Assembly: GCF_001761485.1 (NCBI RefSeq)
Contig: NC_090774.1
Coordinates: 1,674,001 to 1,738,000 of the forward strand
DNA: 64,000 bases
From: Yarrowia lipolytica
Lineage: Eukaryota > Ascomycota > Dipodascomycetes > Dipodascales
Direction: 5' to 3'
Positions within the stretch are counted from its first letter, which is position 1. Each line of letters opens with the position of its first letter. Positions 40,575 to 56,821 of this stretch are shown here, in pieces. The position numbers and the translations under genes were made by a program. The notes under the pieces are model-generated. The model worked only from the letters and a program-made list of their open reading frames with translations. It was not told where the DNA came from and did no database searches.

Positions 40575-42272
40575 TTACAACTTATCGCCAATGAAGTAAG
40601 CCACGACCTTGACCCAGGTCTTGACCTGTCTGTCCTCCTGGTCATAGTCAGTAATGCTCTTTTTGGTGGTGTATCGTTCGATGTGGTCAATCTCCTGCTG
40701 AAGCTGTCGCTTAAGCTCCTCGTCTGTGGTGACAATCAGAGCGTTAGTCTCGAGATCCTTGGAATAGCCTCGTCTAGTGTAGTTAGAAGAGCCCACAACA
40801 GTGATTGATGGCAACTTGTCTCCAGGACCATTGATCCAGATACCCTTGGCGTGGTAAGACCATCCACCGGGGGTGTTGACGACACCTCGCTGCCACTCCA
40901 GCAGCTCAATCTCCTTCTGTCTATGGGCCTTGTTGACGTCAAGAATGAACTGGCGCGCCAGCAGGGTGTAGCAGTCGGGCAAGTACTGCGAGATACCGTG
41001 ACTCTTGTAAAAACCGTTGGCTTGAGGAGAGGCAGTGATGACGGTTCCCTTATCGGGGACACTGCCGAGCAGCTTGGCCTTGAATTCGGGGTGCATGTTG
41101 AAGTAGCCAGCGGTGAAGGTCCATGAAGATCGCTGCATGGACAGCATGGAGAGAAGACGTCCCAGAGTAGGGAACTCGGTGGAGGAATCGGGTTTAAGAA
41201 GGGGAGTGAATTGCGAGATGGGGAATACGAGAGTCTGGGGCTCGGTGGACTCTGACTCGTTCTTAGCCTCCTCGAGTTCAGTTTCTCTTTGGGCTAGAGA
41301 CTTGACCTTTCGTCGGCCGCTCTCGACAGGTTTACTGGTGATGAGAGGAGCAATAGAGGCGGTAGCCTGACGCTGGAACTCGGCAAGAGACACATTGGGG
41401 CTTTGCAGAGTGTTGTTGTTGGGCCATTCCAGCACAAAGCCGGGGTCCTTGACCGGTTCGGGTTCGGGAAGAATCTTCTTGGCAATAGAAGCAGCCTGCT
41501 TTTTGAAGAAGACAGCCATTTTTCCGGGCTCGGGGGCCTTCTCGGCGGGTTTGGGGAGGGCCACTCTCCAGCTGAGTCTGCACACAGCGTTGTGGATGGC
41601 GTGGTAGTAGTCGACAATAGGCCGAGACTTGAACACAAAGTATCGATCCTGTCGGTTGGTAAAGTAGTCTCTGGACAGGTTGGCTCCCGACAGAATGATA
41701 TCGTCGTCGCAACCATACAATTTCATGTGTTGTAGGCCCCAGCCTTCGTTGAATCGCTTGGGGATCAGCTGTTTCTTGAGTCCAAACAGGTGTGGGGTGA
41801 TGTAGCATCTGATATCGACCCGATCTCCGTGTTTGTGGAGCAGGGAGGCCAGAAGAGAGGCCGAGCACGTTTCGGGCTCCTCGCGGGTTCCTCTCAGGCC
41901 GTCAATGAGCACGGAGACCTTGAGACCGGGGTTTTTCGTCAGAGCCTCGTCCAAGCAGCTAACTAGTTCCGTCTCCTCCTTGCCAACGTAAAGAGTGGAG
42001 AGGAACACACGCTCCTTCGCCGCCAGGATTTTCTGCTTGAGCTGGTCGTAGAACTCTTCGGGATCGTACAGAACCTGGATCTGGCCCTTGTCCACGGCAA
42101 ACTTGGGCACTGTGGCTTCAATCTGCTTGAGAGTGATGTTGACGTTACTGTGGAGACCAGAGAGTCCTCGGGATCCGCCGGTGAGTCGCATGGCTCGCGA
42201 AGTTCGGGCACTCACCACGCCTGCTCGTCGAGCTGAGCATACCAATCCAGCCAATCGGGCGTTTCGAAACAT
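40575..42272 (-). CDS. PGS1: Phosphatidylglycerophosphate synthase Pgs1 (mitochondrial)
   Basis: 565 residues from ATG 42272; the open frame extends 18 bp further without an ATG. The N terminus MFRNARLAGLVCSARRAG is basic, amphipathic and without acidic residues, a good mitochondrial presequence. The enzyme belongs to the phospholipase D superfamily and has two HxK motifs: HMKLYGCDDDIILSGANLS (H182, K184, D189) and a second one, HAKGIWINGPGDK followed by GSSNYTRRGYSKD, near residue 460. It joins CDP-diacylglycerol and glycerol 3-phosphate to form phosphatidylglycerophosphate, the first committed step of cardiolipin synthesis in the inner membrane. A charged linker lies between the halves. Length is close to S. 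cerevisiae Pgs1 (521). No breaks. Confidence 0.94.
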   Translation of the reverse strand: MFRNARLAGLVCSARRAGVVSARTSRAMRLTGGSRGLSGLHSNVNITLKQIEATVPKFAVDKGQIQVLYDPEEFYDQLKQKILAAKERVFLSTLYVGKEETELVSCLDEALTKNPGLKVSVLIDGLRGTREEPETCSASLLASLLHKHGDRVDIRCYITPHLFGLKKQLIPKRFNEGWGLQHMKLYGCDDDIILSGANLSRDYFTNRQDRYFVFKSRPIVDYYHAIHNAVCRLSWRVALPKPAEKAPEPGKMAVFFKKQAASIAKKILPEPEPVKDPGFVLEWPNNNTLQSPNVSLAEFQRQATASIAPLITSKPVESGRRKVKSLAQRETELEEAKNESESTEPQTLVFPISQFTPLLKPDSSTEFPTLGRLLSMLSMQRSSWTFTAGYFNMHPEFKAKLLGSVPDKGTVITASPQANGFYKSHGISQYLPDCYTLLARQFILDVNKAHRQKEIELLEWQRGVVNTPGGWSYHAKGIWINGPGDKLPSITVVGSSNYTRRGYSKDLETNALIVTTDEELKRQLQQEIDHIERYTTKKSITDYDQEDRQVKTWVKVVAYFIGDKL

Positions 42273-42615
42273 GTGTTCTGCTGTTTTCACAAGTACGATA
42301 CTGTTGGTCGGGGTCGTTAGTCGGGATATTTCAAAACTGCTGAAGTTTATCCATACATGCGGAGATTAGTATGGGGTAGGAGGAGTGTAGCTGATATTGA
42401 AGGCAAAAGACATTTTGACCGAGCAATCAAGTGACTATGCACTTGAGATCAGATTGTTCAAAAAAGCAATACTGTGCGGTCATTGTTGGCCATTGTTTGT
42501 TCGTCATACTTGCCTTATTGTATCCGAGCGTTGCGGCTCATCAACATACCAGTACAGGCTACAGCATCGCTCAAACACCAACTATGAATACTATTCCTAT
42601 GTACAATGCACCCGT
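42273..42615. other. Intergenic region, uS11m 3' end to PGS1 promoter
   Basis: About 340 bp. A CAACATACCAGTACAGGCTAC stretch and AT-rich sequence are seen, but nothing that can be named. Confidence 0.55.
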
Positions 42616-44458: not shown

Positions 44459-45217
44459 ATGACGCAACAGGAACGAGAAGCCACCCGAGCCATCCGCACC
44501 ACCAAGGCGCCCTACAAGCCGTGGATTAGCTCGCCCAACGTGGGTCTGTCTTTTGCCTACCACCTGATTGGCTTCATCTCATTCGCCTCGTCGTTCCACT
44601 TTCTGGAACAGTACCCCAACCCGCTCAATGCCTCGTACGGAGGAAAGTACCAGTACCTGACCATTCTGGGTCTGTGCGGCAGCTACCTAGCGTTCTTGCT
44701 TGCTCTGCTGGCCGACGCAGCCTCGCTCTACTCCAAGGACTTCAGCAATCTGCTTTACCAGCTCAAAAACTCCGTGTCGGTGGCTGTGACGCCCCTCGAG
44801 TGCGTCATCACCGTGCTCTACTGGTCCCTCAAGCTCTACGACCCCAAGCTGCTCAAACACCCCGCCGTCAAGGAACAGATTCCGTTGTGGCTCGACATGT
44901 CCATCCACCTGGTCCCTGCCGTCGCCCTTTTCCTGGACGTGGTACTCATGGGCCAGCCCTGGAACCTGACCACCGTCCAGGCCGTAGTTGCCAACTTTGG
45001 TCTGTCGGCAGCATACTGGTTCTGGGTCCACAAGACCGCCTCCGTCAACAACTTCTTCCCCTACCCCTTCCTCGGCCTCGTGAGCACCGAGGTCCGAGTT
45101 GGCGTCTTCATTGGAGCCGGGGTTATTGGCTACATTAGCTATATCATCATCCGGGGTCTGCAGTCGACTTTTGCCCGATCTCCCCTCGACCAGCTCAAGG
45201 GCAAAAAGAGCATCTAA
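44459..45217 (+). CDS. AIG1/ADTRP (FAR-17a) family membrane protein
   Basis: Single exon of 252 residues with about six hydrophobic segments. The family signature is visible: LKNSVSVAVTPLECVITVLYWSL with the threonine used as nucleophile in AIG1/ADTRP, and LDMSIHLVPAVALFLDVVL with the partner histidine. In animals these proteins are threonine hydrolases of fatty-acid esters of hydroxy fatty acids; the yeast substrate is not known. The C-terminal GKKKSI-type end (KGKKSI) could serve as an ER-retrieval-like lysine signal, but the position is not ideal. ATG 44459 is the start, preceded by CACACGACACAAAG-type leader sequence. It converges on the next gene with only 161 bp between stops. Confidence 0.82.
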   Translation: MTQQEREATRAIRTTKAPYKPWISSPNVGLSFAYHLIGFISFASSFHFLEQYPNPLNASYGGKYQYLTILGLCGSYLAFLLALLADAASLYSKDFSNLLYQLKNSVSVAVTPLECVITVLYWSLKLYDPKLLKHPAVKEQIPLWLDMSIHLVPAVALFLDVVLMGQPWNLTTVQAVVANFGLSAAYWFWVHKTASVNNFFPYPFLGLVSTEVRVGVFIGAGVIGYISYIIIRGLQSTFARSPLDQLKGKKSI

Positions 45218-45378: not shown

Positions 45379-46089
45379 TCAACGTTCCGACCAAATGTAC
45401 TCGACAAAGGCCATGACATCTTCACACCGAAGACTCACCTGAGCAGTGCTGTTTCCAAGACTCAGAGGCGCAAAATAGATCTTGTTGGTGGCCCGATCAA
45501 TCATGGCAATGGCATCAAGCAACATGCGTCCTCCTCCCATGGGATGAAGTGCCCGAAAAGCTCGCGCAAGGGCAACTGTATGGTCACAGATGAGGGGAAT
45601 AGAATAGTCGTTCTGTGTAGCATGGGCGTCGGTAGTCACGGCAACTACAGTAGCACCTAGCTGTGTTTGTAGAACCGCCCAACACTTTTCCAGCTGCTGT
45701 CGGATATTGGGCTCCATCTGGTCGTCCAGGAAGAACAGAAAGCCGAGCTCACTGGAAATGTCCCGTAGCTTGAGTATTGTCGTATCGCTGTCCATCACAT
45801 CGCTATGTGGACCAAAATACCCTACTTCGCATTCAAATGTAAGAGGAACCTGTCGAATGCTGTATACCGACCCTTGACTGATATACCGAGGGATCTGGGT
45901 GATGCAAGCATGGGTCCGTCGCTGGCTGTGGCCCTTCAGACGCTTTGTGATCTCCTTGACGTTTTCTCCCGAGAGAACAACCTCATCCTCCTCAACTTCG
46001 TCTCGAACTCGTCGTCGTGGAGTCGGTGTGGCGGTCCCGCTACAGCTCTTGCGAGTAGGTGTGCGAGGCTGTCTTGGTATGATGTTCAT
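45379..46089 (-). CDS. Peroxiredoxin-like (AhpC/TSA fold) protein without the peroxidatic cysteine, function unknown
   Basis: Single exon of 236 residues. The first 60 residues are basic and probably disordered (RKSCSGTATPTPRRRVRDE). From about 85 on, the order of elements recalls the thioredoxin-like AhpC/TSA fold: an extended strand with GYFGP, a LRDISSE turn, strand LGFLFFLDDQ, an amphipathic helix, strand GATVVAVTTDAHATQNDY, IPLICDHTVALARAFRAL, and a final MIDRATNKIYFAPL strand with a helix after it. Where active peroxiredoxins have their PxxxT/SxxC cysteine motif, this protein reads DDQMEPNIRQQLEKC, so the motif is missing, although a cysteine occurs ten residues later. A regulatory or structural role is more likely than peroxidase activity. 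The fold assignment is by eye and uncertain; it should be read as a hypothetical protein. Confidence 0.45.
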   Translation of the reverse strand: MNIIPRQPRTPTRKSCSGTATPTPRRRVRDEVEEDEVVLSGENVKEITKRLKGHSQRRTHACITQIPRYISQGSVYSIRQVPLTFECEVGYFGPHSDVMDSDTTILKLRDISSELGFLFFLDDQMEPNIRQQLEKCWAVLQTQLGATVVAVTTDAHATQNDYSIPLICDHTVALARAFRALHPMGGGRMLLDAIAMIDRATNKIYFAPLSLGNSTAQVSLRCEDVMAFVEYIWSER

Positions 46090-46618: not shown

Positions 46619-48054
46619 TTAGATCCTAGCTAGAATGGTTAGTGATCGTGTAGTTCAAATGGGGGAAAGATCAGTAGGAAGGCACTTTGTGCGCTTCCCT
46701 GATGCGTGATGTATACTTACTTGGCAGGAGGAGGGTTAACAATGAACTCCTCGCCCTTGGCAATGTTGCCGTAAAGACCGTCGATGGAGACCTTGAGAAG
46801 CTTCTTCTCGTAGTCGTTGGCCTCGGGAAGGATGTTGTAAGCCTTAGCGGCACCCTCAGGGCCGAACTCGACAGGGACAGAGAAGAAGGCGACACCGACC
46901 TCTCGCTTGATGTCGGAGGTGCCATCAATACCGTCAAGGTAGATGTAGGCGGGCTCGATGATGCCCTTCTCACCAGCGGCACCCTTGAGGACAGCCTCGG
47001 CAAATCGGAAACCAGCCTGGGCCATGGAGAGGGTAGCGGATCCAAGACCGTCCTTAGCCTGGACAACCTCGTCACCACCAAACTGGATTCGCTTGACGAG
47101 GTCGTCGAGCTTGTCGGCGGGGATCTCGACCTTAGGCTTGGTCAGAGACAGGAGAGGGACAATGGTGTCTCCGGAGTGGCCACCAACGACGGGGATGTTG
47201 AGCTTGGTGGGGTCAGACTCGCCAACAACAGCGGCGGTGAAGGTCTGGGCTCGGACAACGTCAAGGGTGGTGACACCGAAGAGCTTCTTAGGGTTGAAGA
47301 CGTTGTGCTTCTTGAGGACCTCGGCAGCAATAGGGACGGTAGAGTTGACGGGGTTGGAGATGATGAGCACAAAGGCATCAGGGGCGTACTGGGCGACACC
47401 GGTGACGAGATCTCGGACGATACCAGCGTTGATCTTGAACAGATCGTCTCGGGTCATACCGGGCTTTCGGGGGATACCGGCGGGGATAACGACAATGTTG
47501 GCGCCGGTCAGAGCGTTCTTGAGACCGTCATCCTTGGGAAGGTAGCCAGTGACCTTAGCCTTGGTGGAGATGTGGGAGAGGTCAGCGGCAACACCGGGGG
47601 AGTTGACGACATCGTAGAGAGCAAGCTCGGTCACGTAAGGAGAGAGTTTGAGGAGAAGAGAAAGGGGCTGGCCAATACCACCAGCGGCTCCGGCAACGAC
47701 AGCTTTAACCACTGAGTTAGTTTCGAGAGTTCATGATACAAAGACATCGCCGGTTGTGCGGAAGCGGGGAACAAGGTAGGGATAATAATCCGCAGCGGCA
47801 TTGGCGATGGCGACAGCGATGGCAACAGCGATGGCAATGCGCGCAAAGAGATCTTGCATTGTGTCGGGTTTTTCAATTGACGATTGCACAACATCCAGCT
47901 GTGTTTCGTGAGGTAATTGACCCTTTTGATAGCAACGCCTCAGAACCACGATCCATGTGCAGCGACTGCAGTCTGCCTTCACTGGCCTTGTGCATGCCAT
48001 TGTTGCCTGTTCAACTCCGCGAGCAATCAATTGACTCCCACCATGATACTCACT
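46619..48054 (-). CDS. MDH2: Malate dehydrogenase Mdh2, cytosolic and peroxisomal by alternative splicing
   Basis: Exon 1 contributes only the A of the start codon (48054). A 342-nt intron (GTGAGT donor; CTAAC-TC-AG) is removed, and exon 2 (47711-46721) begins with TG, so ATG GTT AAA arises only by splicing. The protein starts [20 protein letters not shown] with the NAD-binding glycine motif. The catalytic VVGGHSGDT histidine and the substrate arginines ([12 protein letters not shown]) are present. A second intron (GTAAGT donor at 46720) has two acceptors: AG at 46630 gives an end PPPAN (331 aa), and AG at 46626 gives PPPAKI (332 aa), whose AKI is a peroxisomal targeting signal. An unspliced transcript would stop after PPPAK. 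Such dual targeting is known for Y. lipolytica MDH2. The reaction is malate/oxaloacetate with NAD, used in the malate shuttle and glyoxylate cycle. Confidence 0.95.
46622..46631 (-). promoter_or_regulatory. Tandem alternative 3' splice sites of MDH2 intron 2
   Basis: On the coding strand CTAACCATTCTAGCTAG has AG ends at 46630 and 46626, 4 nt apart. The proximal one leads to an immediate TAG after one codon; the distal one adds lysine-isoleucine and then TAA, which creates the AKI peroxisomal signal. Confidence 0.9.
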
Positions 48055-51812: not shown

Positions 51813-54800
51813 ATGTCATTGAGCTGCGAAAGTCCCCTGTGGGATGGCAGCGATGTGCCCCGGTGTAGTCGCCAAATGTGAGTATTGTGCGGGATCACTA
51901 CACAAATATGAATATGAACCAATCCCCAATACTTGTACACACCACTAACACCAGATACTTCTTCTTCTATCCCTATGTCATCACCATCGCCATCTCGGTG
52001 CTCCTACTGGTCACCCGAACGATCCCCGCCTCGATAAAATACCTCGCACGACAGTCCCGAAAACGAGACCCCTCGGCTAAACCCCTTCTCGCCTCCGAAA
52101 CCTTTGTGGACTCCGATACCGACGATAGTGATAACCTACAGCCCGTGGCGTCGGAAACGTATGGAGCCGTGCTTGTTAACACCCAGCAGCGTCGATTTTC
52201 TGTGCGAGCAGACCGAGCCCGACTCTACGGAGGCCAGAACCCTTCCTCCAAGGATGACACCTCCTACACTGTGTGCCACCGAGGAGTGTTTGGAAACCTG
52301 ACTTTCGCGCTGGAGGGCGTCTGTGTCATTGCCCAGCTGGTTCTGGCTACCCTTCCCTTCACCATTCGAGAGCTCTACCCCGTTTACGAGGGCTACCCTT
52401 ACAACGTGCTTGTCAACATGGCCTTCTGGCTTCTGGCCGTGTCTCTGTACGCCGCTCGAGTCTGTGCCAACTGGTCCAAGTTTCTGGGAGCTCAAAAGTT
52501 GTGGCTGCACTCCACTCTGCTATACACCGTGGCCGTCATCAGCTCGGCCGTTTTCTTCCGATCCGCCATTGTCGACCCCCAGACCCCAATGTCCAAGAAC
52601 TTCTTTGTGGCCCAATTTGCCTTCTGCTCTGTACTTTTCCTCATTTCCATCACAGCAACCTACGCTGATAAGCCTATCGTTCTGACTGCCGTCAAGGGTT
52701 TGCAGCCCTCTCCCGAGGCCATTGCCAGCATTTTGTCCCGATCCACCTTCGGATGGCTTGATCCCATGGTGTACGCCGGATACAAGCGAACCCTTGATCT
52801 CAAGGATGTCTGGGACCTGCGATCTGACGACCATGCTGTGGCCATTCTCAAGGACTTCCGAAAGCTCAAGCGAACGGCTGGACTCATCTGGAGATTCACC
52901 TTCTTCTTCAAGGGCTATCTGTGGGCCTCTTCTATGTGGGCAATTTTCTACTCGCTGGTCACCTTCATCCCCACTGTGCTGCTCAAATCGCTCCTGTCGT
53001 ATGTGGATGATCCCTCAGGCACCCCCAAGAACGTGGCTTGGCTGTACGTCATTGGCATGCTGTTGGCCTCCATTCTCAACAACGTTGGCCAGGGCCAGTG
53101 TCTTTTCATTGGCCGACGAATCTGCGTGCGAATGCGATCCGTCATCATTGGAGAAATCTACTCCAAGGCCATGCGACGAAAGGTCTCTGCTGCCGAGACT
53201 AAGGAGAAGCCCGATGAGCCAATCTCTGGTGAAGCCGAGGTTGACGCGCTCGCAGAAGAAAACAACGGAGAGGGACCACAGCAGGCCAACCTGGGAGCCA
53301 TTATCAACCTGATGGCCGTTGACGCGTTCAAGGTCTCCGAGGTTTGTGCCTACCTGCACTTCTTTGTTGCCTCCATTGTACTCTTTGCCGTGTCCATCTG
53401 GCTGCTGTTTGTGCTTATTGGCTGGTCTGCTCTTGCCGGCTCGCTCGTCATGTTGCTCTTCATGCCTGCCAACTACCTCTTCTCTGCTCAATTCTCTGCT
53501 GTCCAGAAAGATCTCATGGGTGTCACCGATATCCGAATCGAGAAGACCAACGAACTGCTGCAGTCGATTCGAATCATCAAGTTCTTTGCCTGGGAAGACA
53601 AGTTCATTGACGGTGTCAATGAGGTTCGAGAGAAGGAGCTCAAGCTGCTGCGACGACGAGCCATCACCTGGGCTGGTGCCGGTCTCTTCTGGTACATGGC
53701 CCCCTCCCTGGTCACCGTTGCCTCCTTTGGTGTCTACACCTCTGTGCTAGGCCACAAGCTGACCTCTCCTATCGCCTTCACGGCCCTGTCTCTGTTCAAC
53801 ATCATGCGAATCCCCATGGCCCAGTTCACCGAGATGCTTGCTGCCGTTTTGCAGTCCAAGGTGTCCATTGACCGAGTCGAGAAGTTCCTGTCCGAAGACG
53901 AGACCTCCAAGTACGTGCAGCTATGCAACCCCGTTCGAGGTCCCAACTCCCCCTACATTGGTTTCGAGAACGCTACCGTTTCTTGGGGCAAGAAGGAGTC
54001 CGACTTCAAGCTGCGAGACCTCAACCTGTCCTTCAAGGTCGGCCAGCTCAACCTCGTTATTGGTCCCACCGGCTCTGGAAAGACCTCTCTTCTGCTTGGA
54101 CTGCTCGGAGAGATGGAGCTTGAGCAGGGCCAGGTCTTCCTGCCTGGTGCTGAGCCTCGAGAACAGCTCGCCATCGATCCTTCCACTGGCTTCACCGAGT
54201 CTGTCGCCTACTGCCCCCAGCAGGCTTGGTTGCTCAACGACACTGTCCGAAACAACATTCTCTTCTCTTCTGAGTACGAGCCCACCCGATACCAGGCGGT
54301 AGTCAAGGCATGTGGTCTGGAGCGAGACTTCGAGATTTTGGAGGCTGGAGATTCCACCGAGGTCGGAGAGAAGGGTATCACTCTGTCTGGAGGCCAGAAG
54401 CAGCGTATCTCGCTGGCTCGAGCTCTCTACACCCGTGCTCGACACGTGATTCTCGATGACTGTCTTTCTGCTGTTGACTCCCACACTGCTGCCTGGATCT
54501 ACGAGCACTGCATCACTGGTGAGTACATGGCCAACCGAACCTGTATTCTTGTCTCCCATAACGTTGCTCTGACCATCACCAACGCCGACAAGGTGATCAT
54601 CATTGAAAATGGACGAATCAAGGGCGCTGGAACTCCGCAGGAGATGGCCGACCAGGGTCTTCTTGGAGACGACAAGCACATTCTGTCCTCAGCATCTGTC
54701 TCCGCTTCTAAGAACGCTTCCCACGTGAACCTTCCCGATGCTGCTGAGGCTGCTGCCGCTGATGCCGAATCTGATCTGCTGACCAAGGTTGCCTCTCGAA

Positions 54801-56821
54801 TCGCCGAAGAGACTCCTTCTGGAGCTGGAAAGCTCACCCAGGAGGAGGCCCGATCCGAGGGAACCGTGCCCTGGTCCGTCTACGAGGGATACATGGCCAA
54901 CATGGGTGGTCTCATTTTCTGGGGTGGTCTGACCATTGCCTTTGTGGCCTCTCAATCAGCTGAAATGTACCAGTCTTTCTGGATCCGACAGTGGGCAATT
55001 GGTGTTGGTACCCCCGACGACGGTGTGGAGCCCGGAACTCTTCTTTCTGTCGCCAAGGTTGTCCAGTCTTCTCCCGTTCTGCAGTCTCTCTCTGTCTTCT
55101 ACCACAATGTTACCTCCAACTTTGTCAATGTTGAGGACGAGACCCACGCCGCTCACTCGGCTGGCTACTACCTGACCATCTACTTTATTCTGGCTGTTGT
55201 CTTTGTTTTCCTGTCTGTTTCCAAGGAGCTGTACATTTTCTTTGGAGGTTTGCGGGCTTCTCGAAAGCTGTTTAACGAGCTCATGCAGAAGGTTGTCTAT
55301 GCCAAGCTGCGATTCTTTGACTCCACTCCAATTGGCCGAATCATGAACCGATTCTCCAAGGACGTGGAGGCTCTGGATCAGGAAACTGCCATGGCCGCAG
55401 GAATGATGGTCCAGAACTTTTTGGCTTGCCTGGCCACTGTGGTTCTTATCACCATGATCACACCTTCCTTCCTGTTCTTTGGTATCATCATTGCCGGCAT
55501 CTACCTGGCCATTGGTATCTTCTACCTGACCACATCTCGAGAGCTCAAGCGCCTGGACTCCACCACAAAGTCTCCTATCTACCAGCACTTTGGAGAGACT
55601 TTGGTTGGTGTGACTACCATCCGAGCCTACGGAGATGAGCCACGATTTGTACGAGATAATCTGGAGAAGGTCGACACCAACAACCGACCTTTCTTCTACC
55701 TGTGGGTTGCCAACCGATGGCTGTCTTTCCGAGTTGATCTTGCTGGTGCTCTCGTCACCTTCTTCGCTGGTGCTTCCATACTCATGGCCATTGGCAAGAT
55801 TGATTCTGGCCTCGCAGGTGTGTCTCTCACCTACGCCATCCTCTTCTCTGAGAATGTGCTGTGGGCTGTGCGACTCTATGCCGTCAACGAGATGAACATG
55901 AACTCTGTCGAGCGAATCCAGGAGTACCTTGATCTGGACCAGGAGCCCCCGGCCGTCATTGAGGACTCTCGACCTCCTGCCAACTGGCCCTCAAAGGGAG
56001 AGATTGAAGTCAACAACCTGTCCCTCAAATACGCTCCTGAGTTGCCTGATGTCATCAAGGACGTTACTTTCCACGTCCAGCCGCAGTCCAAGGTCGGTAT
56101 TGTCGGCCGAACCGGAGCCGGTAAGTCCACCATCATCACCGCCTTCTTCCGACTCATTGAGGCCCACCAGGGTAGCATTAAGATTGACGGCGTGGACATT
56201 GGCAAGATTGGTCTCAAGGACCTGCGACGAGGCCTGGCCATTATCCCCCAGGACCCCACTCTCTTCACGGGAACCATCCGAACCAACCTGGACCCCTTTG
56301 ACCAGTACACAGACGAACAGGTATTTGAGGCGCTTCGACGGGTGCATTTGATCGAGGACTCCTCCAGCTCCGAGTCTGACGGTAGCAGCTCTTCTGCTGT
56401 CGCTACTAACGAAAACAAGAACCAGTTCAAGGACTTGTCTTCTGCTGTCACTGAGTCTGGATCCAACCTGTCTCAGGGTCAGCGACAGCTCATGTGTCTA
56501 GCTCGATCGCTTCTCAAGAGCCCCAAGGTTATTCTTCTGGACGAGGCTACTGCATCCATCGACTACGAGACGGACGCCAAGATCCAGAAGACCATCCGAT
56601 CGGAGCTCAACGACACCACCATTCTCACCATTGCCCACCGTCTCCGATCCATTATCGACTATGATCAGATTCTGGTTCTGGACGCTGGCGAGGTCCGAGA
56701 ATATGCTCCTCCCCACGAGCTTTTGCAGGACAAGGACGGAGTCTTCTACTCTCTGTGTGCCGACTCTGGCGAGTTTGAGGCTCTCATTGACTTGGCTAAG
56801 GAAGCCTACGAAAAAGCATAG
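51813..56821 (+). CDS. Full-length ABCC (MRP-type) vacuolar transporter, Ybt1/Ycf1 group
   Basis: A 65-nt exon 1 (51813-51877; MSLSCESPLWDGSDVPRCSR) is joined by a 77-nt intron (GTGAGT donor, CTAAC-ACC-AG) to exon 2 (51955-56821): 1643 residues. The layout is TMD0, TMD1, NBD1, TMD2, NBD2. NBD1 has GPTGSGKTS, LSGGQKQR and HVILDDCLSAVD, where aspartate replaces the catalytic glutamate as usual in ABCC proteins; NBD2 has GRTGAGKST, LSQGQRQL and VILLDEATASID. The FGWLDPMVYAGYKR stretch and the EEN-rich loop before TMD1 helices recall Ybt1/Vmr1/Nft1 more than Ycf1. Family members carry glutathione conjugates, bile acids or phospholipid breakdown products into the vacuole. A start inside the intron would lose the N-terminal tail; the spliced one is preferred. 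Confidence 0.92.

What the first reader, a model, noticed from the sequence alone, without database searches (positions are those of the whole stretch)
46619..46720. Two splice acceptors 4 nt apart switch MDH2 between cytosol and peroxisome
The last intron of MDH2 has AG at 46630 and again at 46626. The first joins to a stop after PPPAN; the second gives PPPAKI, a peroxisomal targeting signal. Retention of the intron would end at PPPAK. The peroxisomal tag is thus added by a 4-nt choice. I recall that dual targeting of Y. lipolytica malate dehydrogenase by alternative splicing is already published, so the interest lies in how the acceptor is chosen.
Basis: partly seen in the sequence, partly recalled or inferred. 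Interest (0 to 1): 0.75.

Follow-up and report, generated by a model that had tools for sequence, protein, structure and literature searches.

The report
Malate dehydrogenase tail chosen by splicing
In the yeast Yarrowia lipolytica, two splice acceptors four letters apart decide whether malate dehydrogenase carries a peroxisome address at its end; the case is real but has been in print since 2012, and how the acceptor is chosen is the part that still deserves a test.

Summary
MDH2 (minus strand; its AG1 product is identical to YALI0E14190p) has a last intron starting at 46720 with acceptors at 46630 (AG1) and 46626 (AG2). AG1 gives PPPAN-stop, AG2 PPPAKI-stop (PTS1 type), retention PPPAK-stop. 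Added here: both acceptors end in CTAG, in tandem; they lie 5 and 9 nt behind the branch motif ACTAAC, whereas 72.5% of Y. lipolytica introns have 1 nt; the stop codons of the PPPAK and PPPAN forms lie inside splice signals; 86 of 120 listed relatives end in K, as the unspliced form would. I propose that the loose spacing makes the choice leaky; this is inference. Conservation could not be tested, for lack of relatives' DNA. A tandem AG alone is at chance level. Already known; modest interest.

The parts
46721..47711 (-). MDH2 main coding exon (from TG of the start codon to AA of the last shared codon)
   Evidence: translation; Ldh_1_N and Ldh_1_C domains; identical to YALI0E14190p
48054..48054 (-). 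Only coding base of exon 1: the A of the start codon ATG, which intron 1 splits
47712..48053 (-). Intron 1 (342 nt), GTGAGT ... ACTAAC-T-CAG, spacing 1 nt: the usual form
   Evidence: consensus in PMC13309789 section 27
46630..46720 (-). Intron 2, short form (91 nt, AG1): product ends PPPAN
46626..46720 (-). Intron 2, long form (95 nt, AG2): product ends PPPAKI
46718..46722 (-). Overlap of donor AA|GTA with codons AAG TAA: the stop of the retained form (PPPAK) lies in the donor (the TAA is 46719-46717)
   Evidence: sequence, translation
46638..46643 (-). Branch motif ACTAAC; 5 nt before the first TAG, 9 nt before the second
   Evidence: sequence; motif scan
46626..46633 (-). Tandem CTAG-CTAG holding both acceptors; the second TAG (46628-46626) is also the stop codon of the PPPAN form
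46619..46625 (-). End of the PPPAKI form: G completing Lys, ATC, TAA

Best explanation
MDH2 of Y. lipolytica makes a cytosolic (PPPAN) and a peroxisomal (PPPAKI, PTS1) enzyme from one pre-mRNA by choice between two TAG acceptors 4 nt apart. The isoforms, the functional PTS1 and a medium-dependent ratio are in print (seen second-hand). Inferred here: the choice is leaky because the first acceptor sits at the outer edge (5 nt) of the branch-to-acceptor spacing that this spliceosome handles well, and a second acceptor with the same last four letters lies at 9 nt, so spacing rather than acceptor letters sets the ratio; changes in the speed of the second splicing step would shift it.
For: Exact isoforms and P0001 identity; published event. 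PMC13309789 section 27: 72.5% of introns have 1 nt between branch motif and acceptor, 94.4% at most 10; mean efficiencies above 0.41 (mostly above 0.52) at 0-5 nt, 0.23 beyond 5 nt. In 258 kb only the 1-nt class exceeds a Markov control (27 against 6.75). Intron 1 of the same gene has the usual 1 nt. Intron 2 also has minority motifs GTAAGT (5.9%) and TAG (11.1%). Folds of 181 and 81 nt are no better than shuffles, which leaves little for a structural selector.
Against: No junction counts were available, so the ratio and its control were not measured here. The published efficiency figures compare different introns, not two acceptors of one intron. TAG acceptors are nearly as efficient on average as CAG (0.60 against 0.65). 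The base behind the cut differs (C after AG1, G after AG2), as do the letters before the shared CTAG, so acceptor context is not equal in all respects. A weak local hairpin exists.
Confidence: 0.6

Rival explanations
1. A trans-acting factor or kinase that responds to carbon source picks the acceptor, so that the ratio is regulated for the glyoxylate cycle rather than set by spacing.
For: The ratio is said to depend on the medium (PMC8124512 passages). Overall splicing efficiency differs by carbon source: glycerol highest, then oleic acid, then glucose (PMC13309789 section 24).
Against: No factor or binding motif was found or looked for here; the general carbon-source effect on splicing could shift the ratio without a dedicated factor.
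Confidence: 0.25
2. A small hairpin (GAUC-A-CUA pairing with UAG-GAUC, AG1 in the loop, AG2 and the branch motif in the stem) selects the acceptor.
For: Predicted as the best fold of a 35-nt piece, -4.1 kcal/mol, z -1.95, 12 of 200 shuffles as good; also present in the 181-nt fold.
Against: Absent from the best fold of 81 nt (z 0.49); the 181-nt region folds like its shuffles (z -0.64, 45 of 200); the stem would also hide the branch motif.
Confidence: 0.08
3. The peroxisomal form arises by stop-codon readthrough, as for animal MDH1, rather than by splicing.
For: Readthrough makes peroxisomal MDH1 in human cells (PMC4207609 passages).
Against: Extensions behind the three stops end in LCL, LSI and HDH, none a PTS1, and none of the stops is UGA (sequence).
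Confidence: 0.01
4. The second acceptor is splicing noise and the AKI tail is accidental.
For: A second AG 4 nt on is at chance level.
Against: K-[LMI]-stop in 248 of 1,000,000 random tails; published functional PTS1.
Confidence: 0.06

Closest known systems
Y. lipolytica YlMDH2 alternative 3' splice sites (Kabran et al. 2012)
   Same: Same gene product (YALI0E14190p), same 4-nt difference, same two locations, as told by PMC3798809
   Different: Nothing found; the paper itself is not held
Cryptic PTS1 of fungal GAPDH and PGK by alternative splicing or readthrough (Freitag et al. 2012)
   Same: A central-metabolism enzyme gets a hidden PTS1 in a minor transcript or reading (passages of PMC12316961, and PMC3798809; original not read)
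   Different: Other enzymes and species; whether the acceptor is the varying site there was not checked
Readthrough form of animal MDH1 (MDH1x)
   Same: Same enzyme, same pair of locations, PTS1 in a C-terminal variant (PMC4207609 passages)
   Different: Made at translation, at UGA-CU; here by splicing, and no extension has a PTS1
Candida albicans GND1 (6-phosphogluconate dehydrogenase)
   Same: Alternative splicing gives cytosolic and peroxisomal forms in a yeast (PMC3798809 passages)
   Different: N-terminal PTS2, not C-terminal PTS1
NAGNAG-type tandem acceptors (splice-junction wobble)
   Same: Two nearby AGs compete in one intron (PMC2875228, seen only in a search listing)
   Different: The step of 4 nt changes the frame and the tail; a 3-nt step adds or drops one residue

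Membership tests
YlMDH2 alternative 3' splice-site event | Same gene and protein | tested here: met
   AG1 product identical to P0001, YALI0E14190p
YlMDH2 alternative 3' splice-site event | Two introns forms differing by 4 nt, one product with PTS1 | tested here: met
   91 and 95 nt; PPPAN and PPPAKI; the published description is
YlMDH2 alternative 3' splice-site event | Both transcripts present, two locations | not testable with these tools
   No RNA or imaging data; second-hand
Usual Y. lipolytica intron | GT-AG ends with CTAAC branch motif | tested here: met
   GTAAGT ... ACTAAC ... TAG
Usual Y. lipolytica intron | One nucleotide between branch motif and acceptor (72.5% of introns) | tested here: not met
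   5 and 9 nt in intron 2; intron 1 of the same gene has 1 nt
Readthrough-type cryptic PTS1 | UGA-CU stop context and PTS1 in the extension | tested here: not met
   Stops are TAG, TAA, TAA; extensions end LCL, LSI, HDH

The most novel reading that the evidence does not exclude
The splice donor that overlaps the Lys-stop end of fungal cytosolic MDH is old: in many fungi the last letters AAG TAA G may be read either as Lys-stop or as a donor AA|GTAAG, so that a hidden PTS1 lies one splicing choice away, and the 4-nt acceptor pair of Yarrowia is one local solution on an ancestral switch. Hints: 86 of 120 listed relatives end in K (0.08 of residues in their bodies), 8 of 120 end in [KRH][LMI], and the Blastobotrys gene model has the splice-made Asn at the same place. 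No DNA of a relative was seen, and the 120 are related and mostly gene models.
Probability: 0.15. Interest if true: 0.55.

Novelty: already known. Interest (0 to 1): 0.25.

Why it matters
It is a compact example of one gene serving two compartments in a yeast with few introns: stop codons and splice signals share letters, so acceptor choice is also the choice of the last residues. How the ratio is set was not found in the papers searched (Kabran et al. not read). Because the two acceptors share their last four letters and differ mainly in distance from the branch motif, this intron is a good test case for distance-based 3' splice-site choice in a spliceosome used to a 1-nt spacing.

Tried and rejected
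Readthrough as the source of the PTS1: rejected, no PTS1 in any extension. RNA structure as the selector: folds of 181 and 81 nt are no better than shuffles; a 35-nt hairpin is weak. Uniqueness of ACTAAC-N5-TAG-N-TAG: one site in the genome, but the reversed control pattern has three, so it proves nothing. Conservation in Yarrowia relatives: not testable, since the genome has no relatives in the genome search and the listed 120 proteins hold one Y. lipolytica entry. RNA-seq junction data: the main text of PMC13309789 has no hit for malate, MDH2 or Kabran, and supplementary look-ups are capped at zero. Literature searches that listed relevant papers. One search (3 papers) gave nothing on MDH; one search listed 8 of 267 papers, none of the 8 with the name Blastobotrys adeninivorans. 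The MDH paralogue on C4 ends QNP, no PTS1. One more weak point: by the Markov control about 25 of the 36 intron-like 3' ends with 0-2 nt could be chance, so the 0 of 36 is a rough control only.

Full report
What is there. The window lies in a 20.5-Mb genome of six contigs (G000:C5:1674001-1738000). The gene on the minus strand, coding from 48054 to 46619, encodes a malate dehydrogenase with Ldh_1_N and Ldh_1_C domains; its AG1 product is letter for letter P0001, YALI0E14190p of Yarrowia lipolytica CLIB122. One other match to the protein is found in the genome, on C4 (57% identical); its longest frame ends in QNP, without a PTS1.

Splicing in a script gives a first coding exon of one base (A of ATG, 48054), intron 1 at 48053-47712, the main exon at 47711-46721, and intron 2 from 46720 to 46630 (AG1) or 46626 (AG2). 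AG1: 331 aa ending NPPPAN. AG2: 332 aa ending NPPPAKI. Retained: 331 aa ending NPPPAK.

Anatomy seen directly (positions from its ruler). The TAA that would end the unspliced form is inside the donor (AA|GTAAGT); the TAG that ends the AG1 form (46628-46626) is itself the second acceptor. So the stop codons of these two forms are also splice signals. Both acceptors end in CTAG, in a tandem CTAGCTAG; they differ in the base behind the cut (C after AG1, G after AG2), in the letters before the shared CTAG, and in distance from the branch motif ACTAAC (46643-46638): 5 and 9 nt. CTAGCTAG occurs once in the window where 0.40 are expected, which is not unusual.

Chance. An AG four bases behind an acceptor is expected in one of 16 cases. 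In 258 kb of this chromosome 3 of 64 intron-like 3' ends have one, MDH2 included, and 0 of the 36 with a spacing of 0-2 nt (one of 65 rows dropped as an indexing artefact; these are motif matches, and by the Markov control many are chance). A tandem that also yields K-[LMI]-stop for this exon end came up in 248 of 1,000,000 random tails. The tandem alone is ordinary; the PTS1 is less so, though the test is post hoc.

Known. PMC3798809 (passages): the Y. lipolytica cytoplasmic and peroxisomal MDH come from transcripts that differ in intron size by four nucleotides, and only one carries a functional PTS1. PMC8124512 (passages): YlMDH2 gives a varying ratio of the isoforms depending on the media. 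Both cite Kabran et al. 2012, which is not held; its own words were not seen. The finding is the published event. A 2026 survey of 2421 introns (PMC13309789: abstract, sections 24 and 27, and passages) has no hit for malate or MDH2 in its main text.

How the acceptor may be chosen (inference). In that survey 72.5% of introns have one nucleotide between branch motif and acceptor, 94.4% have at most ten, and mean efficiency, above 0.41 at 0-5 nt, is 0.23 beyond five. My motif count agrees in that only the 1-nt class stands above a Markov control (27 against a mean of 6.75 in 4 replicates). AG1 at 5 nt is at the edge of the efficient range and AG2 at 9 nt beyond it. GTAAGT (5.9% of canonical introns) and TAG (11.1%) are minority motifs, though TAG is nearly as efficient as CAG on average (0.60 and 0.65). 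With the last four letters equal, the likeliest reason for mixed use is a slow commitment to AG1 because of the loose spacing. Against a structural selector: folds of 181 and 81 nt are no better than shuffles (z -0.64 and 0.49). For it: a 35-nt piece forms a hairpin with AG1 in the loop and AG2 in the stem (-4.1 kcal/mol, z -1.95, 12 of 200 shuffles as good), also present in the 181-nt fold. The published part is firm; the spacing step is untested. A carbon-source-dependent factor is the main rival.

Relatives. Of the 120 listed proteins (of 7997 scored), 86 end in K (39 in [SAC]K) and 8 in [KRH][LMI]; K makes up 8% of the bodies. By the stricter test [SAC][KRH][LMIF] 4 of 120 end in a PTS1. 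These are related sequences, many of them gene models, not weighted for kinship. The commonest fungal end in this list is thus the end that Yarrowia would make by keeping intron 2. P0002 of Blastobotrys adeninivorans matches the AG1 form through PPPAN (80% identity over 331) and then runs on into a homologue of the Yarrowia gene next door (45379-46089 minus; 26% identity over 138 positions, E 4e-11 for the single comparison). That looks like a fused gene model, but it suggests conserved gene order and a predicted splice at the same place. Without DNA this is a hint only.

Verdict. Real, correctly read, already published. Modest interest for the question of acceptor choice.

Noticed in passing
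48054 / 47712-48053: Intron 1 of MDH2 splits the start codon after its A. PMC2911113 section 6 says that 47 Y. lipolytica genes have a first coding exon of that one base, so this is a known habit of the species.
   Followed up: partly
45379-46089 (minus) and P0002: The gene behind MDH2 has no Pfam match but is similar to the C-terminal part of a 492-aa Blastobotrys adeninivorans MDH entry (P0002), which looks like a fusion of two neighbouring genes in a gene model.
   Followed up: partly
relatives P0001-P0120: 86 of 120 listed fungal MDH relatives end in K, one residue short of an [SA]K[LI]-like end in 39 cases ending [SAC]K; reason unknown.
   Followed up: partly
40575-42290 (minus), 44459-45217 (plus), 51878-56821 (plus): Neighbours: a protein with phospholipase D motifs, a FAR-17a/AIG1-like protein whose frame ends in KKSI, and a 1647-aa ABC transporter frame.
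   Followed up: no
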